A stretch of 64,000 nt of DNA from Vibrio salinus (lineage in GTDB: Bacteria; Pseudomonadota; Gammaproteobacteria; Enterobacterales; Vibrionaceae). Positions 21,657 through 54,008 of the stretch are shown here, in pieces. The stretch's first letter is position 1; every line of letters begins with the position of its first letter. The stretch is from contig NZ_JAJSDZ010000010.1 of NCBI RefSeq assembly GCF_021272385.1, positions 558,001 through 622,000 on the forward strand. The letters are read 5' to 3'. The notes under the pieces were generated by a model. That model was not told the DNA's origin. It was given only the letters and a program-made list of their open reading frames with translations, and searched no databases. The translations under genes were made by a program, and so were the position numbers.

Positions 21657-22970
21657 ATGTTTTTCAAGCGTTCATCAACGAAAGAAGACGAGTCTGTTAA
21701 AAAAGAGCTGAATATCAGCCGACAAATAATGCGGGATCTTGAAAGTGATATGTTAAGGATCACACTGAGTAGTGATGGTGTTATTGCATCCACTAACAGT
21801 GCTTTTTGCCAAGATTTAGGCTTTCAGTCCGATCAGATCACAGGTAAACGCTTTATTGACTTTGTTCCTGCTAATGCGCGTGATACTGAACATTATCAGA
21901 ATTTAAAACAATCCGTTACTTCGTATAAGCACTGGTCAGGTGCTGTACAGATTGTAAAGGGAGACGGGACAGAAGGATGGTTACGGGTCATCGTTCAGCC
22001 GGTTGAAAACCTAAGCGGTAAAGTAGAGGATATCCTGATCTATGCTTCCGAATTAACCCGCACTATCGGCACATCCCGTGAACAAGAAGATATGATTAAA
22101 GCGATTATGCGCTCATCGGCTGTCATAGAGTTTAATCTTGACGGAACCGTAATCACCGCCAATGAAAATTTTCTCAGTACAATGTCTTACCGGTTAGAAG
22201 AGATTGTTGGTAAACATCACCGGATGTTTTGTGAACCGGAACTTTATAACTCTTCTGAGTATGCAGCGTTCTGGCAAAATCTGAACGCAGGTAACTTTAT
22301 CAGCGATCGTTTCAAACGGATCGATAAATACGGGAATGTGGTTTGGTTAAGAGCATCATATAACGCCGTACACGATAGCCATGGGAAATTATACAAAGTC
22401 GTGAAATTTGCTTCAGATATCACCGAGCAAGTTAATAGAGAAATGGCGATCTCAGAAGCTGCGGATATCGCCTATGATATTTCTCAAGAAACGGATGCTA
22501 ATGCAGAAAATGGGAATAAGGTAATTGGTGATACCATTAAAACTATTGAAGAATTAGCGCATCAGATGACAGAAGCCAGTGAAGGGATAATGCAACTTGA
22601 TCAGTTATCGAAGCAGGTAGGTCAACTGGTGACCAGTATCAGTGGCATTGCAGAGCAGACAAACTTACTGGCCTTAAATGCTGCGATAGAAGCTGCCAGA
22701 GCCGGAGATCAGGGTAGAGGGTTTGCTGTGGTTGCAGATGAAGTCAGGGAACTTGCATCAAGAACATCGAAGACAACGGCAGAAATTGTTGAGGTGGTAA
22801 CCAAAAATCAGGAACTGACCGCAAATGCTGTAAATCTGATTAATGCCGGTCATGATAAAACGCACGACGGATTAGAACTGTCTAATGAAGCCGGGGAAGT
22901 GATACAGAAAATACAGGAAGGCGCTAAAAAAGTGGTGAATGCAATTGGCCAGTTTAACCAGAAGTTATAA
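21657..22970 (+). CDS. soluble PAS-PAS methyl-accepting chemotaxis protein
   Basis: 437 residues without membrane helices, so a cytoplasmic receptor. Two PAS domains (about 35-135 and 145-260) are followed by a short signalling domain. PAS hallmarks include [20 protein letters not shown] and [20 protein letters not shown], the latter with the GKHHRMFC loop often seen in Aer-like and McpS-like receptors. The hairpin tip is the conserved [18 protein letters not shown] followed by [18 protein letters not shown]. The helices after the tip are short, and no C-terminal CheR-binding pentapeptide is present. Redox, oxygen or small-ligand sensing is inferred. It is preceded by GAGGAAG. Confidence 0.92.
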
Positions 22971-42372: not shown

Positions 42373-43338
42373 ATGAAAATATTATTAGTAGATGATGTTA
42401 AGTTAGACAGAATGCAGCTTGCTATTCGTTTAAAACAGCTAGGGCATAGTGTACAAAGTGTACCGAGTGGCAGAGATGCTCTGGCGTCCTATGAATTGTT
42501 TGAGCCGGAGTTGATTATACTCGATGTCATGATGCCGGAAATGTCCGGATACGAAGTGTCGACATTCCTCAGGGCAAAGTACAAAGACTGGGTTCCGATT
42601 ATTTTTCTCAGTAGCCATGACGAACCGGAAATGATTGCTCAGGCAATTAATTCCGGGGGGGATGACTACTTAATTAAGCCGGTTGAAAAGCTGGTTCTGA
42701 TGTCAAAGTTATTGGCAATGCAGCGTATTGCCGACATGAGACGAGAACTGAAGACAACAACGGCAAAATTAGAACAGCTTAACCAGTTGCTGCAGAGGCA
42801 GGTTCATGAAGATGGACTGACACAGGTTCATAACCGGCGCTATATGGACGAAAAATTACATGAAATGGTGTCTGTTCATGGCCGTCATCATTTACCCCTG
42901 ACCGTCATTTTGTTTGATGTCGATTTATTTAAGCTTTTCAATGACAATTATGGGCATACTGAAGGCGATCAGTGTCTTTGTACAATTGCTCAGACGGTAA
43001 ATAAGCTTTTTCCTAGAGCCGGGGAGTATGTTGGACGGTACGGCGGGGAAGAATTTGTCGTGTTTCTGGGACATTGCGATCAAAAACAGGCCGAAAGAGC
43101 GGCCAATCGCATACAGGTGGCAATTCAGGCGATTAATTACCGGCATGAATACAGTTCAGTTGAAGATCATATTACCGTTTCTCAGGGGATAGTGACATTT
43201 TTTCCAACGGGTAAGGAAACGCTGAACCGGGTGTACGATATGGCAGATGACGCGTTGTATAAATCAAAAGAAAATGGCCGGAATTGTTTTTCATTCTGGG
43301 ATGGTAACGAGAATATTCGTTCTAAGACTCACCGTTAA
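42373..43338 (+). CDS. response regulator with GGDEF output (diguanylate cyclase)
   Basis: 321 residues. REC domain (1-120) with MKILLVDDVKLDR, phosphoacceptor Asp in LIILDVMMPEMSGYEV, and Lys in DYLIKPVEKL. A coiled linker (MRRELKTTTAKLEQLNQLLQ) leads to a GGDEF domain with intact RYGGEEFVVFLG. The allosteric I-site position reads RAGE instead of RxxD, so product inhibition may be weakened. It should make c-di-GMP when phosphorylated. No histidine kinase gene is adjacent. Confidence 0.94.
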   Translation: MKILLVDDVKLDRMQLAIRLKQLGHSVQSVPSGRDALASYELFEPELIILDVMMPEMSGYEVSTFLRAKYKDWVPIIFLSSHDEPEMIAQAINSGGDDYLIKPVEKLVLMSKLLAMQRIADMRRELKTTTAKLEQLNQLLQRQVHEDGLTQVHNRRYMDEKLHEMVSVHGRHHLPLTVILFDVDLFKLFNDNYGHTEGDQCLCTIAQTVNKLFPRAGEYVGRYGGEEFVVFLGHCDQKQAERAANRIQVAIQAINYRHEYSSVEDHITVSQGIVTFFPTGKETLNRVYDMADDALYKSKENGRNCFSFWDGNENIRSKTHR

Positions 43339-43437: not shown

Positions 43438-43623
43438 CTATTTAAATCCCATTTTTTTCAGAATTGAAAGTGCAGGGCAAAATCCGGTGAATGCACTCTG
43501 AATTAGATTGAGTCCGATAAACACTGTAAACCAGATAAAATATGGGTGAACATACCAGGTTAGTGCGACAGACAGCAGTACCATACATCCAACCACCACC
43601 CGTAAAGCATTTTCAATATTCAT
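43438..43623 (-). CDS. DUF2892-family small membrane protein
   Basis: 61 residues, two membrane helices (ALRVVVGCMVLLSVALTWYV; FIWFTVFIGLNLIQSAFTGF) and the family ending GFCPALSILKKMGFK. DUF2892 proteins accompany rhodaneses and YeeE/YedE transporters in sulfide and sulfane-sulfur clusters (compare the membrane part of YgaP). Here it is divergent from an HlyU/BigR-like sensor that heads a PmpAB operon, which fits. AAGGAGG ribosome site. Probably controlled by the same ArsR protein. Confidence 0.88.
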   Translation of the reverse strand: MNIENALRVVVGCMVLLSVALTWYVHPYFIWFTVFIGLNLIQSAFTGFCPALSILKKMGFK

Positions 43624-43668
43624 AATTGAGGCCTCCTTTATAATCTCAATATTATAGTAACACTTATT

Positions 43669-43702
43669 TTAGATAAATCTAATTTTATTTTTGCTAAATT
43701 AG
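43669..43702. promoter_or_regulatory. candidate ArsR-type operators
   Basis: TTAGAT-AA-ATCTAA (43669-43682) and CTAAATTAG (43694-43702) are AT-rich inverted repeats between the divergent DUF2892 and ArsR genes. They resemble the AT-rich palindromes bound by BigR/HlyU-type sensors, and probably control both directions. Confidence 0.5.
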
Positions 43703-43761
43703 GTTTGACTAAATTATACTATTGAATATGATGAAGTGAATGAATGCTGAGGGGGCATTGT

Positions 43762-44070
43762 ATGGCGAAACCGGCTGTTGATGTACAGAAAATGAAAGGG
43801 AGTGCGAAAGAAGTATCAGAGTTACTTAAGATACTGTCTCATCCTGAACGTTTGATGGTGCTTTGTCAGTTGACTCAGGGTGAAATGAGTGCCGGGCTAT
43901 TACAGGAATGCTCAGACCTGAGTCCTTCCGCGTTTTCTCAACATTTATCGGTTTTACGAAAACATAATTTAGTGGTCGTCAGAAAAGAAGCTCAGCAGGT
44001 TTTCTATTCTCTTGCCGGTGATAAAACATCGGAAGTGATAGCAAGCCTGCAGGCATTATTTTGTCAGTAA
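43762..44070 (+). CDS. HlyU/BigR/SqrR-like ArsR-family sulfur-sensing regulator
   Basis: 102 residues from ATG 43762 (GAGGGGG upstream); an ATG at 43744 is less likely. The winged HTH reads LSHPERLMVLCQLTQGEMSA, then LSPSAFSQHLSVLRKHNLVVVRKEAQQVFYSL. Cys35 in VLCQL and Cys101 in the terminal LFCQ occupy the places of the two cysteines that form the polysulfide link in HlyU, SqrR and BigR. It lacks the metal-site CxC of ArsR/SmtB. It heads the operon with two sulfur-type transporters and an RND pump. Confidence 0.87.
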   Translation: MAKPAVDVQKMKGSAKEVSELLKILSHPERLMVLCQLTQGEMSAGLLQECSDLSPSAFSQHLSVLRKHNLVVVRKEAQQVFYSLAGDKTSEVIASLQALFCQ

Positions 44071-44097
44071 TAATGAGAGATGAATCGGAGAAATAGA

Positions 44098-44511
44098 GTG
44101 AATGATATTTGGCTGGCATTAGGTGGAGGCGCATTACTTGGTGTGTCTGCAAGTATTCTAATGCTTTTTAATGGAAAGGTGGCCGGGATTAGCGGCATTT
44201 TAGCTTCCTCGATGAGACCTAAGCATCCTGGTTTCAGCTGGAGTCTTCTTTTCAGTGTCGGTGTTGTATGCGGAGGCTATATGGCTTGCGTTTATTTCCC
44301 GAAACTCAGTTTGGGTGCGATAAAACTCTCTTTGCCACAACTGGTTATTGCCGGTCTGTGTGTGGGAATCGGAACCCGTCTGGCAAACGGATGTACCAGT
44401 GGTCATGGTATCTGCGGAATGGGACGGCGTTCCATTCGCTCTGTTGTCGCTACCGGGATTTTTATGCTTGTCGCCGGGTTTACTGCTTATATTAATCTCC
44501 ATTTGTTATAA
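44098..44511 (+). CDS. YeeE/YedE-family sulfur transport protein, PmpA-like
   Basis: 137 residues from GTG 44098 with CGGAG at good spacing; an ATG at 44080 adds six polar residues. About four membrane helices. The hallmark is GTRLANGCTSGHGICGMGRRSIRSVVATGIFM, with the conserved Cys of YeeE-type thiosulfate or sulfane-sulfur channels. Half-size proteins of this kind occur in pairs (PmpA and PmpB) next to BigR in other bacteria, and here the partner follows after nine bases. Confidence 0.85.
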   Translation: MNDIWLALGGGALLGVSASILMLFNGKVAGISGILASSMRPKHPGFSWSLLFSVGVVCGGYMACVYFPKLSLGAIKLSLPQLVIAGLCVGIGTRLANGCTSGHGICGMGRRSIRSVVATGIFMLVAGFTAYINLHLL

Positions 44512-44520
44512 GGACGGATG

Positions 44521-44991
44521 ATGAAAAAATTTCTTTTTCATGGTGTTTCATTATTGTGCGGACTGCTATTTGGTGCTGGTATGGTGATATCCCAAATGGT
44601 GAACCCCGCGAAAGTCATTGGTTTTCTGGACGTGACCGGACATTGGGACATCAGCTTAATGTTTGTCATGTTGGGAGCTTTAATCGTATTTACGCCGGTA
44701 TTCTGGCTGATAATAAACCGGAGAAATCGTCCTTTACTGGCCGGTACATTTTCATTTAGTACGTTAAAAAAGATTAATTGCCGTTTAGTCGCCGGGTCAG
44801 TTGTATTTGGTGTCGGTTGGGGGCTTTCCGGTATCTGTCCCGGCCCGGCTTTGGCCAGAATGAGTTTTATGGAAGTGAATACCTGGGTATTTTTTGCATC
44901 AATGCTGTTGGGATTAGCCGGTACTCAGTATTTTGTGCAAAAAGTTAACAACAGGAAAGAGCAGCTTAAGTTATCTCTTATGGAAAAATAG
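44521..44991 (+). CDS. YeeE/YedE-family sulfur transport protein, PmpB-like
   Basis: 156 residues (ATG 44521 has better spacing from AGGA than ATG 44518). Membrane helices with FGAGMVISQMVNPAKVIGFLDV near the start, and VFGVGWGLSGICPGPALARM, carrying the second conserved Cys. Expected to pair with the preceding PmpA-like protein to make one channel for thiosulfate, persulfide or a related sulfur species. The substrate is inferred from family and sensor. Confidence 0.86.
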   Translation: MKKFLFHGVSLLCGLLFGAGMVISQMVNPAKVIGFLDVTGHWDISLMFVMLGALIVFTPVFWLIINRRNRPLLAGTFSFSTLKKINCRLVAGSVVFGVGWGLSGICPGPALARMSFMEVNTWVFFASMLLGLAGTQYFVQKVNNRKEQLKLSLMEK

Positions 44992-45045
44992 ACTAGGTTT
45001 AAATGAGTTAAATAATCAACACCGCCGGAAGCTGAGGAGTTGAAC

Positions 45046-46062
45046 ATGGGGTTACTAAAGAAGAAATATCGGGTACTGGGGTATGTCTGTGTTTTACTTA
45101 CTCCGCTTTTTTCATTTGCTGAAAATGATTCGTTATATAAAGTTGAAAAACAAATAGTTCCTGTTTATTTGCCACTGGATGGTACGGTTGAAGCAGTCAA
45201 TCAGGGAACGGTAGCTGCGCAGACGTCCGGTCGTGTTATTGGCATAAATGTTGATGTTAACGATAAAGTTAAAAAAGGAGCGGTTCTTCTGGAAATCAGC
45301 CGGACAGAGCAGACCGCTGTTCTTGACTCTGCCCGTGCTGGTTTGACTTCGGCCATTGCCCGCAACGATGATGCCCAGAGTCAGTTAAAGAGGTTCAGGC
45401 AATTATTTCCTAAAGGAGCCATTTCACGTCAACAGATGGACTCTGCTATTGCCAGTGCCAAAAGTGCCGGGGCTGCCGTAAAGTCGGCTGAAGCGGCAGT
45501 AAAACGTGCCAAAGAATCGTTAGGGTATACCAATATCCGGGCTCCTTACGATGGTATTGTGACCAAAAGGCATGTTGAGCTTGGTGAAACGGTGTCGGTC
45601 GGAACACCTTTATTAAGTGGTTACGGGACTCACCCTCTCCGAATTGCACTGGATATTCCTCAACAGTACCGGAATCGGATTCATTCTGCTGACCAGTTTT
45701 CCGTTGTTCTTCCGTCAGGTAAAAAGGTATCTCCTCTTGATTATCAAATTTTTCCTTATGCCGATGTACGGACTCATGCTTTTAAAATTCGTTTAACGAT
45801 CCCGGATTCTGCGACAAACTCAGAACAGCTGGTTCCGGGGATTTGGTTAAAACTGAACGTACAAATAGGTCAAAATGAATTGATGTTAATTCCTAAATCA
45901 TCTGTCGTAGTCCGTGGTGAACTGAGTTCGGTTTACCGCCTGTCAGATCAGAAACGGATGTTGAATCCGGTCCGAACCGGGCAGGAATTTGGTGATGATG
46001 TTGAAGTTCTTTCCGGCCTGGAGCCCGGTGATGAAATCCTTCAGGATGCATACCGACTTTAG
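45046..46062 (+). CDS. RND efflux periplasmic adaptor subunit
   Basis: 338 residues from ATG 45046, with GAGGAG six bases before it. N-terminal signal/anchor helix (YRVLGYVCVLLTPLFSFA). No lipobox cysteine. The lipoyl domain halves GTVAAQTSGRVIGINVDVND and YTNIRAPYDGIVTKRHVELG flank an alpha-hairpin. The family is AcrA/MexA-type adaptors. It follows pmpB by 54 bases with no terminator, and precedes the RND permease by 11 bases. Adaptor of a pump predicted to respond to sulfane sulfur. Confidence 0.9.
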   Translation: MGLLKKKYRVLGYVCVLLTPLFSFAENDSLYKVEKQIVPVYLPLDGTVEAVNQGTVAAQTSGRVIGINVDVNDKVKKGAVLLEISRTEQTAVLDSARAGLTSAIARNDDAQSQLKRFRQLFPKGAISRQQMDSAIASAKSAGAAVKSAEAAVKRAKESLGYTNIRAPYDGIVTKRHVELGETVSVGTPLLSGYGTHPLRIALDIPQQYRNRIHSADQFSVVLPSGKKVSPLDYQIFPYADVRTHAFKIRLTIPDSATNSEQLVPGIWLKLNVQIGQNELMLIPKSSVVVRGELSSVYRLSDQKRMLNPVRTGQEFGDDVEVLSGLEPGDEILQDAYRL

Positions 46063-46073
46063 AGGAGGCTGTT

Positions 46074-49000
46074 ATGGATAAGAAAACAGGAATATCAGGA
46101 CGTATTGCCAGTGTGTTTCAGGGCTCTGCCATTACGCCTTTACTGGCTCTTGTCGGGCTGTTGATGGGCCTTTTTGCTATATGGGTAACACCAAAGGAAG
46201 AGGAGCCTCAGATAGATGTAACATTTGCTGATGTCTTCATTCCTTTTCCCGGTGCAACACCATCAGAGGTAGAAAGTCTGGTGACGAATTCTGCAGAACA
46301 GGTGATTTCTGAGATTCAGGGAATTGATACGATTTATTCTTTTTCACGAGCCGATGGTGCTGTGATCATTGCGGTATTTAAGGTTGGTGTGGCAAGAAAT
46401 GATGCGGTAGTGAAAATTTATAATAAACTTTACTCCAATAAAAATTGGTTGCCTTCTGGCGTGGGCGTTGGTGAGCCAGTTATTAAACCCAAAGGTATCG
46501 AAGATGTACCTATTGTTGGTATTACATTGAGTGATCCCGGCGGAAAACTGGGATCAGTCGGTCTGACAAAAGTGGCACACGGACTCGAAACCGAGCTGAA
46601 ACGTGTCCCCGGAACCCGGGATATTTACACGGTTGGCGGACATAATGAGATAGTGGATGTCCGGATAGATCCAACCAAACTGAACAGTTTTGGTCTTACT
46701 TTGTCGCAGGTGATGAATGTCCTGAAATCCGCTAATTCAAGTTCTCAGCAGCTTTCTGTGACTCAGCATAATATTCAGATTCCGGTTCAGGCCGGACAAT
46801 ATCTGAGTTCTGTCGGAGATGTCCGGCATCTGTTACTAACCGTTATGAATGGTTCTCCTGTCTATCTGAATGATGTTGCCTCGGTTAATCTGAGGGCCGG
46901 TGTCCCGACCGCCAACGTGTGGACCAGTGATAAAACGAAAGTCGATCCGGCAGTGACTATTGCGGTTGCAAAAAAAACTGGTGAGAACGCGGTGGTGGTG
47001 GCTGCTGCCGTGGAAAAACGGCTTCAGGCTTTGCGGAATACATTAATTCCTGACGGTGTAAAAATAGATATCACCCGTGATTACGGGAAAACCGCGCTGA
47101 GTAAAAGTAATACGCTGATTGGTAAGCTGGTGTTTGCTACTGGTGCTGTTGTTATTTTAGTGCTGCTGACAATGGGGTGGCGGGAAGCAATCGTCGTTGG
47201 TATGGCCATTGTGGTTACCCTGATGGCTACTCTGTTTGCGTCATGGGCTTGGGGGTTTACGCTTAACCGGGTTTCTTTATTCGCTTTGATTTTTTCCATA
47301 GGTATTTTGGTCGATGATGCCATTGTGGTGGTTGAAAATATTCACCGGCATATGCAGATGAAACGGGGCGTCAGGCTGAAGGAATTAATTCCTTCAGCAG
47401 TAGATGAAGTTGGTGGACCGACGATTCTGGCAACGCTGACCGTGATTGCAGCCTTGCTTCCTATGGCATTTGTAACGGGGCTGATGGGGCCCTATATGAG
47501 TCCCATTCCGATTAATGCATCGATGGGAATGTTGATATCGCTCGCGGTAGCGTTTGTTTTCTCGCCATGGTTATCCGGAAAGTTACTTAAGGCGACTTCC
47601 GGTCATGCATCTGATGAAAGTAAATCCATTTCGTTCTTTAGACGATTAATGGGGCCTTTTGTTTCATCTCCCCGGCAAAGACGAAACCGGTGGCTACTGG
47701 GGCTTGGTGTGATTGCTCTGATGCTGTCAACGTTTACTCTTCCGCTGACACAACTTGTTGTAATGAAAATGCTGCCATTTGATAATAAATCAGAATTTCA
47801 GGTCGTTCTCGATATGCCGGATGGCGCTTCTCTGGAAAAAACGCAGCGGGTTTTATTCGAAATGGGGCAGGTTCTTGATAAAGAAGAGACTGTCCGGGAT
47901 TATCAGATGTATGCCGGAACCGCCGCTCCGATTAACTTTAATGGCCTGGTGCGACATTACTTCTTACGTAGCGCTGCGAATCAGGGGGATATTCAGGTCA
48001 ATCTGTTTGATAAATCTCACCGGGATAAAAGCAGCCATGAAATTGCCACAGAGGTCCGTCCCAAACTGGTTGAAGTTGCGAAACGGTTTGGCGGTAAAGT
48101 GAAAGTTGTTGAGGTCCCGCCCGGTCCTCCTGTCTGGTCGCCCATTGTTGCAGAAGTTTATGGCCCGGATCATGAAATGCGAAAACAGGCTGCAACAGCG
48201 ATAAAGTCCGTTTTTGAGCACAGTAAGGATATTGTTGATGTCGATATTTATCTGCCGACGCCGACTGAAAAATGGCGGGTTAAAATTGATAGAACAAAAG
48301 CGTCTCATCTGGGCGTCAGTTACCAGGATGCGGTGAATACACTGGCTGTTGCTTTGGGTGGTTCGCCTGTTACGTATCTGCACAGTGATCACAGTAAATA
48401 TCCGGTACCGATTCAGATTCAGGCAACTGAGGTGGTGAAAACCAGTATGGATTCACTCTTGCTGTTAAAAGTGGCCGGTCAGAATGGACATTTATATTCA
48501 CTGTCTGAATTTGCCCGTGTGGTAAAAGAGCCGACACCGGACTACATCGTTCATAAAAATCTGGTTCCAATGATCATGGTGGTTGGTGATATGTCGGGCC
48601 ATTTAGACAGTCCTTTATACGGGATGTTTGAAATAGGGAAAAACATCGGCAAACTGCCGTTTCCGGTTGAGCAGAACTATGTGCATCAACCGTCGGGGTT
48701 GAACAATATTTCGGTTCTTTGGGATGGTGAGTGGAAAATTACTTATGAAACGTTCCGGGATATGGGGATTGCCTATGCGGTTGGTATGATTTTGATTTAT
48801 TTGCTGGTTGTTGCACATTTTAAATCGTATTTTGTGCCATTGATCATTATGTCTCCGATACCGTTAACCATTCTTGGTGTGTTACCGGGTCACGCAATGT
48901 TACACGCTCAGTTTACGGCTACCTCGATGATCGGGATGATTGCGCTGGCGGGAATTATTGTCCGTAATTCGATTTTGCTGGTGGACTTTATCAATTATCA

Positions 49001-49238
49001 ATTACAGGAAGGCGTTGCATTATCAGAGGCCGTCATTCATTCGGCGGCTGTCAGAGCGAAACCGATTATTCTGACTGCGTTGGCTGCTATGATTGGTGCT
49101 CTGTTTATTCTGGATGACCCGATTTTTAACGGTCTGGCAATTAGTTTGATTTTCGGGATTTTTGTTTCGACGATTTTGACGTTAGTGATTATTCCGATTT
49201 TGTATTATTCCTATATGAGAAAACGGATTGTTTCTTAG
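46074..49238 (+). CDS. RND-family efflux permease (AcrB type)
   Basis: 1054 residues with the two-fold RND layout: twelve membrane helices and two large periplasmic loops. Helix 4 carries the proton-relay aspartates in FSIGILVDDAIVVVENIHRH, and FVTGLMGPYMSPIPINASMGM and IGMIALAGIIVRNSILLVDFI are further conserved blocks. The GAGGAGG ribosome site is strong. The sequence looks nearer to the less-studied acriflavin-type permeases than to AcrB itself. No outer-membrane factor is encoded beside it, so TolC or another channel must be shared. Confidence 0.93.
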   Translation: MDKKTGISGRIASVFQGSAITPLLALVGLLMGLFAIWVTPKEEEPQIDVTFADVFIPFPGATPSEVESLVTNSAEQVISEIQGIDTIYSFSRADGAVIIAVFKVGVARNDAVVKIYNKLYSNKNWLPSGVGVGEPVIKPKGIEDVPIVGITLSDPGGKLGSVGLTKVAHGLETELKRVPGTRDIYTVGGHNEIVDVRIDPTKLNSFGLTLSQVMNVLKSANSSSQQLSVTQHNIQIPVQAGQYLSSVGDVRHLLLTVMNGSPVYLNDVASVNLRAGVPTANVWTSDKTKVDPAVTIAVAKKTGENAVVVAAAVEKRLQALRNTLIPDGVKIDITRDYGKTALSKSNTLIGKLVFATGAVVILVLLTMGWREAIVVGMAIVVTLMATLFASWAWGFTLNRVSLFALIFSIGILVDDAIVVVENIHRHMQMKRGVRLKELIPSAVDEVGGPTILATLTVIAALLPMAFVTGLMGPYMSPIPINASMGMLISLAVAFVFSPWLSGKLLKATSGHASDESKSISFFRRLMGPFVSSPRQRRNRWLLGLGVIALMLSTFTLPLTQLVVMKMLPFDNKSEFQVVLDMPDGASLEKTQRVLFEMGQVLDKEETVRDYQMYAGTAAPINFNGLVRHYFLRSAANQGDIQVNLFDKSHRDKSSHEIATEVRPKLVEVAKRFGGKVKVVEVPPGPPVWSPIVAEVYGPDHEMRKQAATAIKSVFEHSKDIVDVDIYLPTPTEKWRVKIDRTKASHLGVSYQDAVNTLAVALGGSPVTYLHSDHSKYPVPIQIQATEVVKTSMDSLLLLKVAGQNGHLYSLSEFARVVKEPTPDYIVHKNLVPMIMVVGDMSGHLDSPLYGMFEIGKNIGKLPFPVEQNYVHQPSGLNNISVLWDGEWKITYETFRDMGIAYAVGMILIYLLVVAHFKSYFVPLIIMSPIPLTILGVLPGHAMLHAQFTATSMIGMIALAGIIVRNSILLVDFINYQLQEGVALSEAVIHSAAVRAKPIILTALAAMIGALFILDDPIFNGLAISLIFGIFVSTILTLVIIPILYYSYMRKRIVS

Positions 49239-49257
49239 TGATCGAAAAGCAGATCTG

Positions 49258-49284
49258 ACGGAGCACCAAAGGTGCTCCGTTTAT
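49258..49284 (+). terminator. terminator of the ArsR-PmpAB-RND operon
   Basis: ACGGAGCACC pairs perfectly with GGTGCTCCGT around AAA, followed by TTATTA. It lies 19 bases after the RND stop codon, and is the first terminator-like structure after the ArsR gene. Confidence 0.8.
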
Positions 49285-49413: not shown

Positions 49414-50379
49414 ATGGAATTGCATTTCCTTGGTACGTCAGCAGGGGTCCCGACCAAAAACAGGAATGTTTCCGCCATTGGTTTAAGTGAGAGCAAAGGA
49501 AAACGTTGGTATCTGATTGATTGCGGAGAAGGGACTCAACACCAGCTACTTCGTTCCAGGCTGTCTTTAAACTCATTGGAAGCCATTTTTATTACACACG
49601 TACATGGCGATCATTGCTACGGTTTGCCTGGAGTGTTGGCAAGTGCGGGAATGAACGGAAGGAAAACGCCACTAACAATTGTCGCTCCAAGGGGTATTCA
49701 AGAATGGTTAGAGGCGACTCAGAAACATACGGTATTGAATTTGCCTTATGAGCTCCGTTATCTCTGTTCTGAGACTGATATACTCCCTGACTTCGGTCAG
49801 TTCACTGTGTCAGCTACCGCTCTGTCTCATGTGATTCCGTCTTTCTCATATGGTTTTACTGAAAATGACACCGTGGCAAGCTTAGATACGGATAAACTAG
49901 CAGAAAAAGGTATCCCAAGAGGACCTCTGTGGGGAGAGTTACAGGCAGGAGCCGATGTGTGTTTTAATGGTAAACCTATCCTCAGTCGTGATTTTTTAAA
50001 GCATACTCACAAACCGAGAAAAATCATTATTTGTGGCGATAATGACACGCCATCTTTACTCAAAGAAGAGTGTATCAATTGTGATGTACTGGTGCATGAA
50101 GCAACGTTTACGGAAACGATGGCTGAGAAAGCCAGAGAGTTCGGACACAGTTTCGCACGTCAGGTTGCTCAGTTCAGTCAGGACAACCGTATTCCAAATT
50201 TGTTACTGACACATTTCAGTCCCAGGTTTTCGCCTTTGGTATCCGGTTCGCCATCCATTCATGATTTAAAACGCGAAGCGGAAAGCGTTTATTCCGGGCA
50301 GCTATTTCTGGCCGAAGATTTTCAGCGGTACCGGCTTGATAAAATGGGTGTGCTAAGCCTATCAGACAGGACAACGTGA
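49414..50379 (+). CDS. rnz: ribonuclease Z (tRNA 3'-endonuclease)
   Basis: 321 residues. Metallo-beta-lactamase fold: MELHFLGTSAGVPTKNRNVS at the start, the zinc motif FITHVHGDHCYGLPG, IICGDNDTP, and the C-terminal LLLTHFSPRF. The exosite-like central segment is shortened. RNase Z removes the 3' trailer of tRNA precursors and is about 305 residues in E. coli (Rbn/ElaC). The next gene starts within its stop codon. Confidence 0.93.
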   Translation: MELHFLGTSAGVPTKNRNVSAIGLSESKGKRWYLIDCGEGTQHQLLRSRLSLNSLEAIFITHVHGDHCYGLPGVLASAGMNGRKTPLTIVAPRGIQEWLEATQKHTVLNLPYELRYLCSETDILPDFGQFTVSATALSHVIPSFSYGFTENDTVASLDTDKLAEKGIPRGPLWGELQAGADVCFNGKPILSRDFLKHTHKPRKIIICGDNDTPSLLKEECINCDVLVHEATFTETMAEKAREFGHSFARQVAQFSQDNRIPNLLLTHFSPRFSPLVSGSPSIHDLKREAESVYSGQLFLAEDFQRYRLDKMGVLSLSDRTT

Positions 50380-50702
50380 TGAATAAAACGAATAATTTGT
50401 TTGCTGATCTTCCCGGTGCTGTTCCGGAAGAAATATTTGAAGATCTTGTTGTTGCAAAGAATATAAGAATTGAGCGGATTATTTCCGATGGTCATTCTTC
50501 TCCAGAGGAAGGATGGTATGATCAGGAAGAGAATGAATGGGTATTGGTCCTAGTCGGATATGGCATCCTTGAGTTTGAAGATGGCAGCGAAATAGTACTG
50601 AATCCCGGGGACTATTATACGATTATTGCTCATGAAAAGCATAAAGTGAAAGCAACGTCTGATCAGGAAAAAACAATTTGGCTGACGGTTTTTTATTCAT
50701 AA
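50379..50702 (+). CDS. cupin-domain protein
   Basis: 107 residues from ATG 50379, overlapping the rnz stop by one base (TGATG), so translationally coupled. Cupin fold: EGWYDQEENEWVLVLVGYGILEFEDGSEI and LNPGDYYTIIAHEKHKVKAT. The metal-binding residues expected in motif 1 (GxxxxxHxH) are not intact; HKV in motif 2 supplies one His. Similar small cupins are often beside rnz in gamma-proteobacteria. Function unknown. Confidence 0.87.
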   Translation: MNKTNNLFADLPGAVPEEIFEDLVVAKNIRIERIISDGHSSPEEGWYDQEENEWVLVLVGYGILEFEDGSEIVLNPGDYYTIIAHEKHKVKATSDQEKTIWLTVFYS

Positions 50703-50719
50703 ACGGATACGTATGACTG

Positions 50720-51604
50720 TTATTTGAGCCGTCCAAGTAGCAAGCAATGATCGCTTAATTGGTAATGTTTTAGTGCTTTTGCCGGATATGGAACTTGATG
50801 TGTTTCAGAAATGGTGACGCTGTCCGATGTGATCATATGGTCAATGATGTGACGATAACGGAACGTTTTCCCTCTTTTGTTTAGTTGCCTGCAGTCGGCC
50901 GAAGTTCTTTTGGTGGATAGAATAGGTTGGTGGTTTAGATTGTGAGTTATACCGCGCCATAACCAGTCTTTGGGGTAAGAAAGGTTATGATTGAAATCGC
51001 CCAGAATCGCAAAATCATTATGGTTAATGATTCTTTGTTTCATCCATTTATTTAATTCGACTCCTTGTTTTTTCAAAGTAATGCAGGCCTTCTTATGTGG
51101 ATTCCATTTTCCGAAACAACCGCTTTTCAGATGGACAGACAGCAAATGTAAATCCGGTTTTTGAGTTCGTCTCAATACGATGTAGGAAGCAAAGCGGAGT
51201 TGACTTTTGTGAATTAACTGGATATCTGGTGGGTCAGTAATAAACAGGCTCTTACGGACCGCAAATCCGGTATATTGGTTGATGTCTTTAAACTGAAGCC
51301 GGCTCCATTCCGGTTTTGAGCGATCCGATAAATATAGTTTGTATTCATTTCCAACGACTTTTTTGATTGCCGGACTATCGTTCACTTCCTGAAACGCCAG
51401 AATATCAACGTCGTTCTGTCTGAACAGAGTTGCGAGTTGTTCAAAATCCGAGGAAGATCTTTTATTGATCTTAAGTTTAGAGTGATGGATGGGTTGAGAT
51501 GTCAGCCATTGTAAATTCCAGGATGCTATCGATAGTGCATTGGCAGAAAAAGAAATAGCATAAAAAAAGGAAATAATGAATGAAAAAAAACGTTTCTTTG
51601 GCAT
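50720..51604 (-). CDS. secreted endonuclease/exonuclease/phosphatase-family protein (paralogue)
   Basis: 294 residues with a signal peptide (FFSFIISFFYAISFSANALS). EEP motifs: IASWNLQWLT, ILAFQEVND, SVHLKSGCF, ILGDFNHN, HIIDHMITSD and LSDHCLLLG. Similar throughout to the protein at 5401-6306, with the same four cysteines (GCF, KKAC, SADC, SDHC). Extracellular or periplasmic nuclease or phosphodiesterase, substrate not known. It is convergent with the cupin gene and divergent from nrdD. Confidence 0.88.
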   Translation of the reverse strand: MPKKRFFSFIISFFYAISFSANALSIASWNLQWLTSQPIHHSKLKINKRSSSDFEQLATLFRQNDVDILAFQEVNDSPAIKKVVGNEYKLYLSDRSKPEWSRLQFKDINQYTGFAVRKSLFITDPPDIQLIHKSQLRFASYIVLRRTQKPDLHLLSVHLKSGCFGKWNPHKKACITLKKQGVELNKWMKQRIINHNDFAILGDFNHNLSYPKDWLWRGITHNLNHQPILSTKRTSADCRQLNKRGKTFRYRHIIDHMITSDSVTISETHQVPYPAKALKHYQLSDHCLLLGRLK

Positions 51605-51757
51605 GAAATTTTTCGGGAAATTTTAGCTGCATTGATACTATCACTAAATCAGCACAATGCGAATACTTGACAAAAATTTTAGATTTCGTGATTTATTTTT
51701 CGTAAATGGGATCTTGTAATAAAGTTTGTGTTGTTCTTCACCTTCTAATTCTGTTTA

Positions 51758-51771
51758 TTGATCTAAATCAA
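51758..51771. promoter_or_regulatory. FNR box upstream of nrdD (TTGATCTAAATCAA)
   Basis: Perfect match to the FNR consensus TTGAT-N4-ATCAA. It lies 116 bases before the nrdD start, with TATATTT at about the right distance for a -10 element. It fits activation of the oxygen-independent reductase in anaerobic conditions. Confidence 0.85.
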
Positions 51772-51804
51772 TACTTTCCTAGTGGCATATATTTAAATTA
51801 CAAC

Positions 51805-51850
51805 CCAACATATAGTAACCAATAACTAAAAATATGCCCATATAGTGTGT
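51805..51850 (+). promoter_or_regulatory. pair of NrdR boxes upstream of nrdD
   Basis: Two copies of CATATAGT (51809-51816 and 51839-51846) are spaced 30 bases apart, close to three helical turns, and the second has the fuller ATATAGTGT form of the NrdR consensus. NrdR represses ribonucleotide reductase operons through such paired sites. Confidence 0.6.
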
Positions 51851-51887
51851 TGTTTGGATTTGCACTAGCGGACTAAGGAGAAAAAAG

Positions 51888-54008
51888 GTGAAACCTATCG
51901 TTATCAAACGTGACGGCTCAAAGGCAGCGTTTAACAGGGACAGGATACAGTCGGCTGTAGAGGCCGCTGCTAAACAACCAGATAAAGATACAGCCATTTA
52001 TGCGCTGAATGTTGCTCTTGCTGTTGAGTTAAAGTTGGAAGATAAAGAGCAGGTTAATATTGCCGAAATTCAAACGTTAGTTGAAAACGAATTAATGCAG
52101 GGCCCATACAAGCAGTTGGCGCGTTCTTACATTGAATATCGTCATGACAGAGACATTGCCAGAGAAAAACAAAGTGCATTAACACAAGAGATCGAAGGGT
52201 TGATCAATGAAAGCAACGCGGATCTTCTGAACGAAAATGCAAACAAAGACGGCAAAGTCATTCCTACTCAACGGGATCTGTTGGCTGGTATTGTTGCAAA
52301 ACACTATGCAAAAACACGTATTTTACCCCGGGACATCGTTCAGGCTCACGAACGAGGTGACATTCATTACCATGACTTAGATTATGCACCATTTTTCCCT
52401 ATGTTTAACTGCATGTTGATTGACCTGCGTGGTATGTTGACTGGCGGATTTAAAATGGGTAATGCTGAAATTGACACGCCTAAATCCATTTCAACTGCAA
52501 CAGCGGTTACGGCTCAAATTATTGCTCAGGTAGCAAGTCATATTTACGGCGGTACGACCATTAATGGCATCGACCAGATTCTGGAACCTTATGTCAAAGC
52601 CAGTTATAAGAAGCATTTGGCTGTTGGTGAAGAGTGGGAAGTCAAAGATCCTGAAGCATTTGCTTTAGCCAGAACAGAAAAAGAATGTTATGACGCATTC
52701 CAGTCTTTGGAGTATGAAGTGAATACGCTTCATACAGCAAATGGACAGACACCATTTGTTACTTTTGGTTTCGGCCTGGGAACAAGTTGGGAATCGAAGC
52801 TGATTCAGAAATCCATTTTGAAAAACCGAATTGCCGGTCTGGGTAAAAATCATAAGACGGCTGTTTTCCCTAAACTGGTGTTTGCTATTAAAGATGGTTT
52901 AAACCGTAATCCGGACGACCCGAACTATGATGTAAAACAGTTAGCTCTCGATTGTGCGACCAAACGTATGTATCCGGATATTCTTAATTACGACAAAGTG
53001 GTTGAAGTGACCGGTTCGTTTAAAACTCCTATGGGTTGTCGTAGTTTTCTTGGGGTCTATGAAGAGCACGGAGAACTGGTTCATGATGGGCGTAACAACT
53101 TAGGTGTGGTTAGTCTGAATCTGCCAAGAATTGCGTTACAGGCTCAGGGGGATCGTGATAAGTTTTATGAAATTCTGGACAATCGTCTGGAATTGGCGAG
53201 AAGAGCACTTGAAACCAGAATTAGTCGTCTGGAAAAAGTGAAAGCACGTGTCGCACCTATTTTGTATATGGAAGGGGCTTGTGGAGTCAGATTAAAAGCG
53301 GATGAATCGGTTTCACATATCTTTAAAAATGGTCGTGCTTCTATTTCGCTTGGTTATATCGGTGTTCATGAGACCGTTAATGCACTTTACCGTAACAGTG
53401 GTCATATTTACGACAATACTACATTGCGTGAAGAAGGCGTTGAAATCATTCGTCGCCTGAAAGATGCAACCGTTCGCTGGGCAAAAGAAACGGGTTATGC
53501 ATTCAGCTTGTATGGTACTCCGAGCGAAAACTTGTGTAACCGTTTTTGCAGTATTGATACAAAAGAATTTGGTGTTATTGATGGTGTAACGGATAAAGGA
53601 TATTACACTAACAGCTTTCACCTGGATGTTGAAAAAGCAGTTAATCCTTACGATAAAATTGATTTCGAAATGCCATATCCTCCTTTATCGAATGGTGGCT
53701 TTATCTGTTACGGTGAATTCCCTAACATGCAGCGTAATGTCGAAGCGTTAGAAGATGTCTGGAATTACAGTTATGACCGGGTTCCGTATTACGGTACGAA
53801 TACACCAATTGATGAATGCTATGAATGTGGTTATACCGGAGAGTTTTCCTGTACCAGTAAAGGGTTTGTTTGTCCTAAATGCGGTAACCACGATACAGAG
53901 AAAGTGTCGGTGATTCGTCGTGTATGTGGGTATCTGGGAAGCCCGGATGCAAGACCGTTTAATACCGGTAAACAGGAAGAAGTAAAACGTCGTGTTAAAC
54001 ATCTTTAA
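51888..54008 (+). CDS. nrdD: anaerobic ribonucleoside-triphosphate reductase (class III)
   Basis: 706 residues from GTG 51888 with AAGGAG upstream. An N-terminal ATP-cone (VIKRDGSKAAFNRDRIQSAV) senses nucleotide balance. Later features are RDIVQAHERGDIHYHDLDYA, active-site Cys in FNCMLIDL and MGCRSFLG regions, the zinc site CYECGYTGEF ... CPKCGNHD, and the glycyl radical loop RRVCGYLGSPDARPFNTGKQ. It reduces ribonucleoside triphosphates to deoxyribonucleotides without oxygen, using formate. It is followed by its activase. Confidence 0.97.
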   Translation: MKPIVIKRDGSKAAFNRDRIQSAVEAAAKQPDKDTAIYALNVALAVELKLEDKEQVNIAEIQTLVENELMQGPYKQLARSYIEYRHDRDIAREKQSALTQEIEGLINESNADLLNENANKDGKVIPTQRDLLAGIVAKHYAKTRILPRDIVQAHERGDIHYHDLDYAPFFPMFNCMLIDLRGMLTGGFKMGNAEIDTPKSISTATAVTAQIIAQVASHIYGGTTINGIDQILEPYVKASYKKHLAVGEEWEVKDPEAFALARTEKECYDAFQSLEYEVNTLHTANGQTPFVTFGFGLGTSWESKLIQKSILKNRIAGLGKNHKTAVFPKLVFAIKDGLNRNPDDPNYDVKQLALDCATKRMYPDILNYDKVVEVTGSFKTPMGCRSFLGVYEEHGELVHDGRNNLGVVSLNLPRIALQAQGDRDKFYEILDNRLELARRALETRISRLEKVKARVAPILYMEGACGVRLKADESVSHIFKNGRASISLGYIGVHETVNALYRNSGHIYDNTTLREEGVEIIRRLKDATVRWAKETGYAFSLYGTPSENLCNRFCSIDTKEFGVIDGVTDKGYYTNSFHLDVEKAVNPYDKIDFEMPYPPLSNGGFICYGEFPNMQRNVEALEDVWNYSYDRVPYYGTNTPIDECYECGYTGEFSCTSKGFVCPKCGNHDTEKVSVIRRVCGYLGSPDARPFNTGKQEEVKRRVKHL

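What the first reader, a model, noticed from the sequence alone, without database searches (positions are those of the whole stretch)
43438..49238. Persulfide-type ArsR sensor, PmpAB sulfur channel and an RND pump in one apparent operon
Sequence shows a HlyU/BigR/SqrR-like ArsR protein with the two sensing cysteines (35 and 101), two half-size YeeE/YedE channels, an RND adaptor and an RND permease on one strand with short gaps. The first terminator-like hairpin comes only after the permease (49258). A divergent DUF2892 gene shares the promoter region. From family knowledge, BigR-type sensors and PmpAB deal with sulfane sulfur. Coupling them to RND efflux suggests that reactive sulfur controls a pump, or that the pump exports a sulfur-modified compound. 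I do not know of a description of this combination.
Basis: partly seen in the sequence, partly recalled or inferred. Interest (0 to 1): 0.65.

Follow-up and report, generated by a model that had tools for sequence, protein, structure and literature searches.

The report
Sulfur-sensor operon driving an efflux pump
A Vibrio operon joins a predicted reactive-sulfur sensor, two sulfur channels and a membrane export pump, and the same DNA switch sits in front of related pumps in many other bacteria, so this pump family probably belongs to the cell's sulfur-stress response.

Summary
In detail: a divergent YgaP-like/DUF2892 gene, then arsR, pmpA, pmpB, adaptor and RND permease on one strand, short gaps, one strong hairpin after the permease, sensor Cys35/Cys101. 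Comparison shows more than a chance neighbourhood. Of 148 Vibrio genomes, 58 have both PmpA and the pump, and in 55 they are adjacent on one strand. A 16-bp operator, ATTAG-N6-CTAAT, lies between the divergent gene and arsR in 40 of 41 distinct regions (at most one mismatch; 0.8 expected). It also stands before the pump in 56 of 78 loci with no arsR nearby (Shewanella 33 of 36, others 23 of 42), against 15 of 954 control promoters; 24 of 26 such genomes tested encode a sensor-type ArsR elsewhere. Sister and paralogous RND pumps mostly lack it (2 of 20; 0 of 19). So the pump is very probably a member, in cis or in trans, of a persulfide-sensor regulon. Its cargo is unknown. Permeases of this clade are mostly cysteine-free. 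The Vibrio cholerae member is probably VexLM, a pump without known substrate (inferred). A 2025 paper already notes RND genes near such sensors; I found no description of the operator or the unlinked regulon. Nothing was tested at the bench.

The parts
43438..43623 (-). 61-aa membrane protein, Pfam YgaP-like_TM (formerly DUF2892), divergent; Cys49 kept in 101 of 101 aligned relatives
43668..43683 (.). operator 1, TTTAGATAAATCTAAT (one mismatch to ATTAG-N6-CTAAT), between the candidate divergent promoter and the start of the membrane-protein gene
43698..43713 (.). operator 2, ATTAGGTTTGACTAAA (one mismatch); contains the candidate -35 box TTGACT (43705-43710) of the arsR promoter
43705..43732 (+). 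candidate sigma-70 promoter of the operon (TTGACT, 16 nt, TATGAT)
   Evidence: consensus match only, region total not above chance
43762..44070 (+). ArsR repressor of the BigR/SqrR/HlyU/YgaV type, 102 aa, Cys35 and Cys101
44080..44511 (+). PmpA, half-size YeeE/YedE-type sulfur channel; Cys105 and Cys112 conserved
44518..44991 (+). PmpB, second half-size channel (DUF6691); Cys107 conserved
45046..46062 (+). RND periplasmic adaptor (start 45046 preferred over 45040: GAGGAG ends six bases before it); closest solved relative is the adaptor of 6vej
46074..49238 (+). RND permease, 1054 aa, no cysteine; Asp414/Asp415 present, Arg964 where AcrB has Lys (recalled)
49257..49281 (+). 11-bp hairpin after the permease, likely transcript end

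Best explanation
It is a sulfane-sulfur stress operon whose last two genes code for a dedicated RND pump. Proposed working: in reduced cells the ArsR dimer sits on the two ATTAG-N6-CTAAT operators between the divergent genes and blocks both promoters (one operator contains the operon's candidate -35 box). When persulfides or polysulfides rise, Cys35 and Cys101 of each subunit become bridged by sulfur, the repressor leaves, and the YgaP-like membrane protein, the PmpAB channel and the adaptor-permease pair are made together; the pump then works with a TolC-type channel encoded elsewhere. In relatives the pump lies at another locus but often keeps the same operator, so it belongs to the regulon even when unlinked. 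Shown by computation: gene order, operator, its conservation in cis and in trans, conserved sensor cysteines, specificity for this pump clade. Inferred from relatives: sensing chemistry, repression, TolC partner. Least certain: that the pump removes a product of sulfur stress (organic persulfides or hydrophobic polysulfur, or compounds that become toxic with them) rather than drugs in general; I put that part at about 0.4.
For: Order <TM >ArsR >PmpA >PmpB >MFP >RND recurs in Vibrio and Aeromonas. 21 of 26 Vibrio pump loci also have a CoA-disulfide-reductase/rhodanese gene in the fetched stretch, often beside the divergent gene; one lineage has TM-that reductase-MFP-RND on one strand with ArsR-PmpAB divergent; 37 of 38 Shewanella loci have a rhodanese gene, typically as MFP-RND-TM-rhodanese. 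148 Vibrio genomes: 55 of 58 with both PmpA and pump have them adjacent. Operator: exact in 29 and within one mismatch in 40 of 41 distinct divergent regions, where shuffles give 0.03 and 0.8 (32 and 45 of 46 before duplicates were removed, at spacer 6 only). The motif was read off these regions; the unlinked pumps are the independent test: 56 of 78, Shewanella 33 of 36 and others 23 of 42, against 15 of 954 control promoters. Sensor-type ArsR elsewhere in 24 of 26 such genomes; 19 of the 30 ArsR loci returned carry the operator upstream of arsR. Specificity: P44 sister pumps 2 of 20, HAE-1 paralogs 0 of 19, of which 11 had the full upstream stretch. Cys pair: 56 and 55 of 58 ArsR rows. Cysteine-free permeases: 138 of 166 in clade A, 0 of 39 paralogs. 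Literature: HlyU reacts with persulfides and leaves DNA (PMC10509353, passages and one section); an operon with SQR, a pump and an RND adaptor scored in Bar-seq and was highly expressed during H2S oxidation in Azospira (PMC5358917, abstract and passages).
Against: No expression or binding data exist for this locus. The window's two operators each have a mismatch, and one-mismatch copies are common in this genome (143, below the reversed control's 214); the shorter core TTAG-N6-CTAA occurs 3 times in the window, which 7 of 100 shuffles reach. Only pairing, position and conservation count. The three exact copies in the genome lie inside reading frames. 22 of 78 unlinked pumps lack the operator (19 of them outside Shewanella), many in GC-rich lineages, and in one family the sensor-type ArsR is present but neither it nor the pump has the operator. 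68 of 126 PmpA-bearing Vibrio genomes lack the pump. A separate promoter for the adaptor is not excluded. In Azospira, deletion of the whole operon did not change the H2S oxidation rate, and whether its pump belongs to this clade was not tested. Low cysteine counts are common in HAE-1 pumps (1-4 in the 19 paralogs), so the cysteine argument is weak; all rows are related.
Confidence: 0.7

Rival explanations
1. General drug efflux under a sulfur cue: the sensor uses reactive sulfur as a sign of stress or of entry into sulfidic, anoxic niches, and the pump exports ordinary amphiphiles, bile-like compounds or antibiotics, as MexAB does under MexR.
For: MexR and MarR respond to sulfane sulfur, and MexR then releases the MexAB pump (PMC8614764, passages). 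The permease is an AcrB-type protein; the adaptor's best solved match is 6vej, which I recall as the triclosan pump TriABC.
Against: The pump travels with sulfur-handling genes, and in Vibrio two divergent RND types occur behind the same kind of sensor. If it is VexLM, no tested drug was a substrate (PMC10225521, passages).
Confidence: 0.35
2. Mere co-regulation: PmpAB and the membrane protein do the sulfur work, and the pump is a passenger cassette placed behind a convenient inducible promoter.
For: In 7 of 10 pump-less Vibrio loci nrdD and nrdG follow PmpAB downstream, and nrdD lies in the fetched stretch of 19 of 26 pump-bearing Vibrio loci, so the pump behaves as a cassette in one slot; two RND types occur and none of 69 genomes showed both.
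Against: The same operator stands before unlinked pumps in several families; a passenger would not be expected to keep it.
Confidence: 0.15
3. The ArsR senses something else (hydrogen peroxide, a metal, sulfite) and the sulfur link is secondary.
For: NCBIfam calls the nearest equivalog, BigR, sulfite-sensing; this protein reaches 93 bits, below its cut-off of 155. The sensing chemistry is untested here.
Against: Cys pair as in BigR, HlyU and YgaV and no CXC metal site; the HlyU relative reacts with persulfide and not with peroxide (PMC10509353); neighbours are sulfur genes.
Confidence: 0.1

Closest known systems
BigR / SqrR / HlyU / YgaV persulfide-sensing ArsR repressors (SSN cluster 4 of PMC10509353)
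   Same: Fold and the two cysteines (35 and 101); 41% identity to the BigR core in a two-sequence alignment; sulfur-transport and rhodanese genes nearby
   Different: Below the NCBIfam BigR equivalog cut-off; here the operon ends in an RND pump
ygaVP operon of Escherichia coli (gene content recalled)
   Same: YgaV-like ArsR with a YgaP-like membrane domain
   Different: Here the membrane domain stands alone, without rhodanese, and is divergent; in Shewanella a separate rhodanese gene follows it
bigR operon of Xylella and Agrobacterium (gene content recalled)
   Same: Sensor plus PmpAB-type channels
   Different: No Blh dioxygenase or TauE gene between 43438 and 49238; RND pump instead
PigS and PmpAB-type transporters of Serratia (PMC12423496 and PMC10509353 cite Gristwood 2011; the paper itself not seen)
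   Same: Cluster-4 ArsR and PmpAB transporters
   Different: No RND pump described there as far as I recall
MexR-MexAB and MarR in sulfane-sulfur response (PMC8614764, passages)
   Same: Reactive sulfur relieves repression of an RND pump or of multidrug-resistance genes
   Different: MarR-family sensors of general drug pumps, not an ArsR sensor with sulfur channels in the same operon
Azospira suillum Dsui_3440-3443 (PMC5358917, abstract and passages)
   Same: Pump and RND adaptor in an operon with sulfide:quinone oxidoreductase, highly expressed during H2S oxidation
   Different: The text holds no mention of ArsR or YeeE; clade membership of its pump not tested
VexLM of Vibrio cholerae
   Same: Probably the orthologue: the only RND system on the small chromosome (PMC10225521), and in three cholerae-clade genomes the operon lies on a contig of 1.07-1.11 Mb
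   Different: No substrate is known for VexLM, and the passages I saw name regulators only for VexAB and VexCD

Membership tests
Persulfide-sensing ArsR (cluster 4: BigR/SqrR/HlyU/YgaV) | ArsR winged-helix fold | tested here: met
   HTH_5 and HTH_20 above cut-off; best solved relatives BigR, HlyU, YgaV
Persulfide-sensing ArsR (cluster 4: BigR/SqrR/HlyU/YgaV) | Cys pair in helices 2 and 5, no CXC metal site | tested here: met
   Cys35 and Cys101 align with BigR; kept in 56 and 55 of 58 aligned ArsR rows; no CXC in the sequence
Persulfide-sensing ArsR (cluster 4: BigR/SqrR/HlyU/YgaV) | Tetrasulfide bridge with persulfides and release from DNA | not testable with these tools
   Shown for HlyU in PMC10509353, not for this protein
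BigR equivalog (NCBIfam NF040642) | Score above the curated cut-off | tested here: not met
   93 bits against 155; not filed as BigR proper
PmpAB half-channels | Sulf_transp domain in PmpA, adjacent partner, conserved cysteines | tested here: met
   PmpB itself matches DUF6691, not Sulf_transp
PmpAB half-channels | Transport of sulfur species | not testable with these tools
   Assay needed
HAE-type RND permease | ACR_tran domain and paired Asp of the proton relay | tested here: met
   525 bits; Asp414/Asp415
HAE-type RND permease | Lys of the relay (AcrB Lys940, recalled) | tested here: not met
   Arg964 instead; Arg in 176 of 176 clade A, 14 of 14 B and 20 of 20 P44 rows; the pattern fitted only 4 of 19 HAE-1 paralogs, all Lys
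HAE-type RND permease | NCBIfam multidrug permease cut-off (RND_permease_2) | tested here: not met
   467 bits against 1250
ygaVP-type operon | Rhodanese fused to the YgaP membrane domain | tested here: not met
   61-aa membrane domain only
bigR-blh operon | Blh sulfurtransferase/dioxygenase in the operon | tested here: not met
   None among the genes of 43438-49238
VexLM orthologue | Same locus as VexLM in V. cholerae | tested here: inconclusive
   Cholerae-clade genomes carry the operon on a contig of 1.07-1.11 Mb and VexLM is the only RND system on the small chromosome; N16961 itself not read

The most novel reading that the evidence does not exclude
Clade A (and, by separate recruitment, clade B) is a dedicated RND family for getting rid of reactive sulfur: it takes hydrophobic zero-valent sulfur, organic persulfides or polysulfides from the membrane or periplasm and expels them through TolC, while PmpAB moves charged sulfur species across the inner membrane. 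Its own cysteines have been lost because its cargo attacks thiols, and VexLM of Vibrio cholerae is the member nobody could find a substrate for.
Probability: 0.3. Interest if true: 0.82.

Novelty: new variant of a known kind. Interest (0 to 1): 0.62.

Why it matters
RND pumps are studied mainly as drug-resistance machines, and the natural cargo of most is unknown (general knowledge). A shared operator that ties one RND clade to persulfide sensors in several gammaproteobacterial families gives a concrete, testable physiological role, names the inducer to try (polysulfide or persulfide rather than antibiotics), and offers a reason why a pump such as VexLM showed no substrate in uninduced drug screens. 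How cells export excess sulfane sulfur is itself, as far as I know, an open question.

Tried and rejected
Chance neighbourhood: rejected by 55 of 58 adjacency and by operator conservation. Operator as a genome-wide predictor in this genome: rejected, since one-mismatch copies are commoner in the control and the three exact copies lie in coding frames, one at window 22871-22886 inside a PAS/chemotaxis gene. VexEF as the V. cholerae counterpart: my first recall (note), dropped because the review places vexEF on the large chromosome and only vexLM on the small one. Locus tags VCA0638-0642 in papers: no paper held two of the first term set; single tags turned up only as the edge of an unrelated region (PMC8265649) and in PMC12423496; the four papers with VexLM terms hold none of the tags searched. 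SQR inside the pump operon, as in Azospira: I searched for no SQR profile and saw none among the adjacent genes that I annotated; the wider phylum loci could not be fetched. Published operator motifs of SqrR/SoxR: none found with the terms I used in the two Hyphomicrobium papers and the Rhodobacter paper. Acinetobacter in vivo fitness paper: unrelated. Structure prediction was not run: sequence similarity to solved BigR and HlyU already places the sensor. While checking this report I recounted with duplicates removed; the operator and control counts were mended, the share of Shewanella among the unlinked pumps was added, and I lowered the main confidence from 0.72 to 0.70 because 33 of the 56 supporting loci are Shewanella.
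Full report
What is there. The window holds, from 43438 to 49281, a small divergent membrane-protein gene and five genes on the plus strand: arsR, pmpA, pmpB, an RND adaptor and an RND permease. Gaps are 9, 6, about 50 and 11 nucleotides. An 11-bp hairpin follows the permease (49257-49281, z -5.4); the gap before the adaptor folds no better than shuffles. The window lies in a Vibrio genome of 4.46 Mb: G000 shares its genus with genomes whose contigs match named Vibrio records in length or sequence.

Is the arrangement real biology? With the window that makes 141, or 133 after removal of identical permeases. The full order recurs in Vibrio and Aeromonas. 21 of 26 Vibrio loci also have a CoA-disulfide-reductase/rhodanese gene (NPSR in my notes; Pfam and NCBIfam), often beside the divergent gene. 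In another lineage that reductase sits directly before the adaptor on one strand, with ArsR-PmpAB divergent. In Shewanella the usual order is adaptor, permease, membrane protein, rhodanese (rhodanese family in 37 of 38 loci). In some loci of two further families the pump is followed by a CsoR-type regulator, a persulfide-dioxygenase-like protein or a BLH phosphatase. The window lacks the reductase beside the membrane-protein gene; the only match in its genome at E 1e-40 is 38% identical and unlinked.

Reverse test. In 148 Vibrio genomes the pump was found in 69 (E at most 1e-150) and PmpA in 126 (E at most 1e-4). 58 genomes have both, and in 55 of these they lie within 3 kb on one strand. The pumps fall into two kinds: 42 of type A (58% identity or more to the window) and 27 of type B (37-40%). 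Each of the 69 genomes gave one match only, so none showed both. In the B loci fetched the permease comes before the adaptor (12 of the 14 loci below 50% identity). Of ten pump-less loci fetched, seven have nrdD and nrdG downstream of PmpAB, six of them with the endonuclease/exonuclease/phosphatase-type gene as well; 19 of 26 pump-bearing Vibrio loci have nrdD in the fetched stretch. The window has nrdD and the same kind of neighbour further downstream (50720-54008). The pump therefore behaves as a cassette in a fixed slot. A tree of 68 permeases puts type A on one side of a branch; 12 B rows form another clade; a sister group, P44 (42-45% identity), lies beside A with support 93, below the 95 mark. 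Two of the 14 rows labelled B by identity fell elsewhere, and long outgroup branches make the root unsure.

The operator. Between the divergent genes I found an inverted repeat, ATTAG-N6-CTAAT. Of 41 distinct divergent regions 29 have an exact copy and 40 a copy with at most one mismatch; letter shuffles give 0.03 and 0.8. Before duplicates were removed it was 32 and 45 of 46, and among spacers 0-12 only 6 stood out. The motif was read off these regions, so this count describes it rather than tests it. The window has two copies, each with one mismatch, at 43668 and 43698; the second contains the -35 box of the likely operon promoter. In this genome single one-mismatch copies mean nothing: 143 against 214 for the reversed control. 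The shorter core occurs three times in the window, which 7 of 100 shuffles reach. Pairing, place and conservation carry the weight.

The pump without the sensor beside it is the independent test. 78 loci with distinct permeases have no ArsR within 6 kb. In 56 of them a copy with at most one mismatch lies in the 380 bases around the start of the pump genes: 33 of 36 in Shewanella, whose rows are close relatives, and 23 of 42 in the rest. Among other genes of the same loci it is 49 of 1,056 unfiltered and 15 of 954 after leaving out genes beside the operon and the reductase and rhodanese families; the left-out set has 34 of 114, 19 of them reductase genes (one search gave 15 of 1,019 with duplicates). 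In 24 of 26 such genomes a strong sensor-type ArsR is encoded elsewhere (best E about 4e-31 or lower), and 19 of the 30 ArsR loci returned have the operator upstream of arsR. In four genomes of one family the unlinked locus is exactly reductase, membrane protein, operator, ArsR, PmpA, PmpB. Against this, in the family f16 a sensor-type ArsR is present but neither it nor the pump has the operator. Specificity: P44 pumps have it in 2 of 20 promoters (4 of 20 within 2.6 kb) and HAE-1 paralogs in 0 of 19, of which 11 had the full upstream stretch. Over all 177 clade A loci, which include some loci twice, 130 have a copy within 2.6 kb upstream.

Extent. With E at most 1e-170, which includes P44, 183 of 369 gammaproteobacterial genomes have a match; with E at most 1e-270, 40 of 398 genomes across the phylum.

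Cysteines. Of 166 distinct clade A permeases 138 have no cysteine and none has more than two; B 7 of 14; P44 and HAE-1 paralogs 0 of 20 and 0 of 19 (the first 15 residues left out). The adaptors show no such contrast. Related sequences are not independent and nine of the 19 paralogs have only one, so this is a hint that the pump works among thiol-reactive compounds, no more. The membrane protein's Cys49 is kept in 101 of 101 aligned rows, PmpA Cys105/Cys112 in 39 and 37 of 41, PmpB Cys107 in 44 of 45.

Link to a named pump. Three genomes of 4.0-4.3 Mb carry the operon on contigs of 1.07-1.11 Mb and are 87-95% identical over 12-15 kb to the V. mimicus and V. metoecus records. A review (PMC10225521, passages) says that V. 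cholerae has six RND systems, that only vexLM is on the small chromosome, and that no tested compound was its substrate. For V. cholerae BigR, PMC10509353 prints VC_0642; PMC12423496 prints VC_A0642, but beside the name HlyU. I recall vexLM as VCA0638-0639, which would make five consecutive genes in the right order, but found no text that says so. I hold VexLM as probable, not shown.

What is known already. PMC12423496 (section 2.1 read) states that two-cysteine sulfane-sulfur ArsR regulators lie near RND pumps, TauE, SoxT and PmpAB genes; its supplement was not seen. PMC5358917 (abstract and passages) reports an operon with a pump, SQR and an RND adaptor that scored in Bar-seq and was highly expressed during H2S oxidation, while its deletion left the oxidation rate unchanged; a DUF2892 gene elsewhere rose about tenfold. 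MexR and MarR respond to sulfane sulfur (PMC8614764, passages). So reactive-sulfur control of RND pumps as such is not new. I found no text on this operon, on the operator in front of unlinked RND pumps, or on two RND clades sharing one slot, in the ten searches, which cover open-licence papers only and of which I read few.

Verdict. Confirmed observation; the regulatory reading is well supported by sequence and untested at the bench; the cargo is unknown.

Noticed in passing
L099 and L103; L102-L104: In one family the same pump clade is followed by a CsoR/FrmR-family regulator (L099, L103), with a persulfide-dioxygenase-like protein (L099) or a BLH phosphatase (L102-L104), and lacks the operator: perhaps a different sulfur-type regulator on the same pump.
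   Followed up: partly
49414-54008: nrdD and an endonuclease/exonuclease/phosphatase-type gene lie downstream as in pump-less Vibrio loci; the window has two extra genes (RNase Z-like, cupin) between pump and these.
   Followed up: yes
42373-43338: A response-regulator/GGDEF gene stands where many Vibrio have the CoA-disulfide-reductase/rhodanese gene.
   Followed up: partly
L121, L119: The V. metoecus record has interrupted adaptor and permease frames and the V. mimicus record an interrupted pmpB; intact copies exist in other records.
   Followed up: no
22871-22886: An exact operator-like sequence inside a PAS/chemotaxis gene, probably chance.
   Followed up: yes
L289-L308: P44, a sister group of RND pumps with 2-7 cysteines; of the profiles searched only one ArsR was found near one of the 20; several lie in the same genomes as clade A pumps.
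   Followed up: partly
L128 (Vibrio sp. HDW18): The pump and divergent membrane-protein gene sit on a replicon labelled plasmid, without ArsR or PmpAB found nearby.
   Followed up: no
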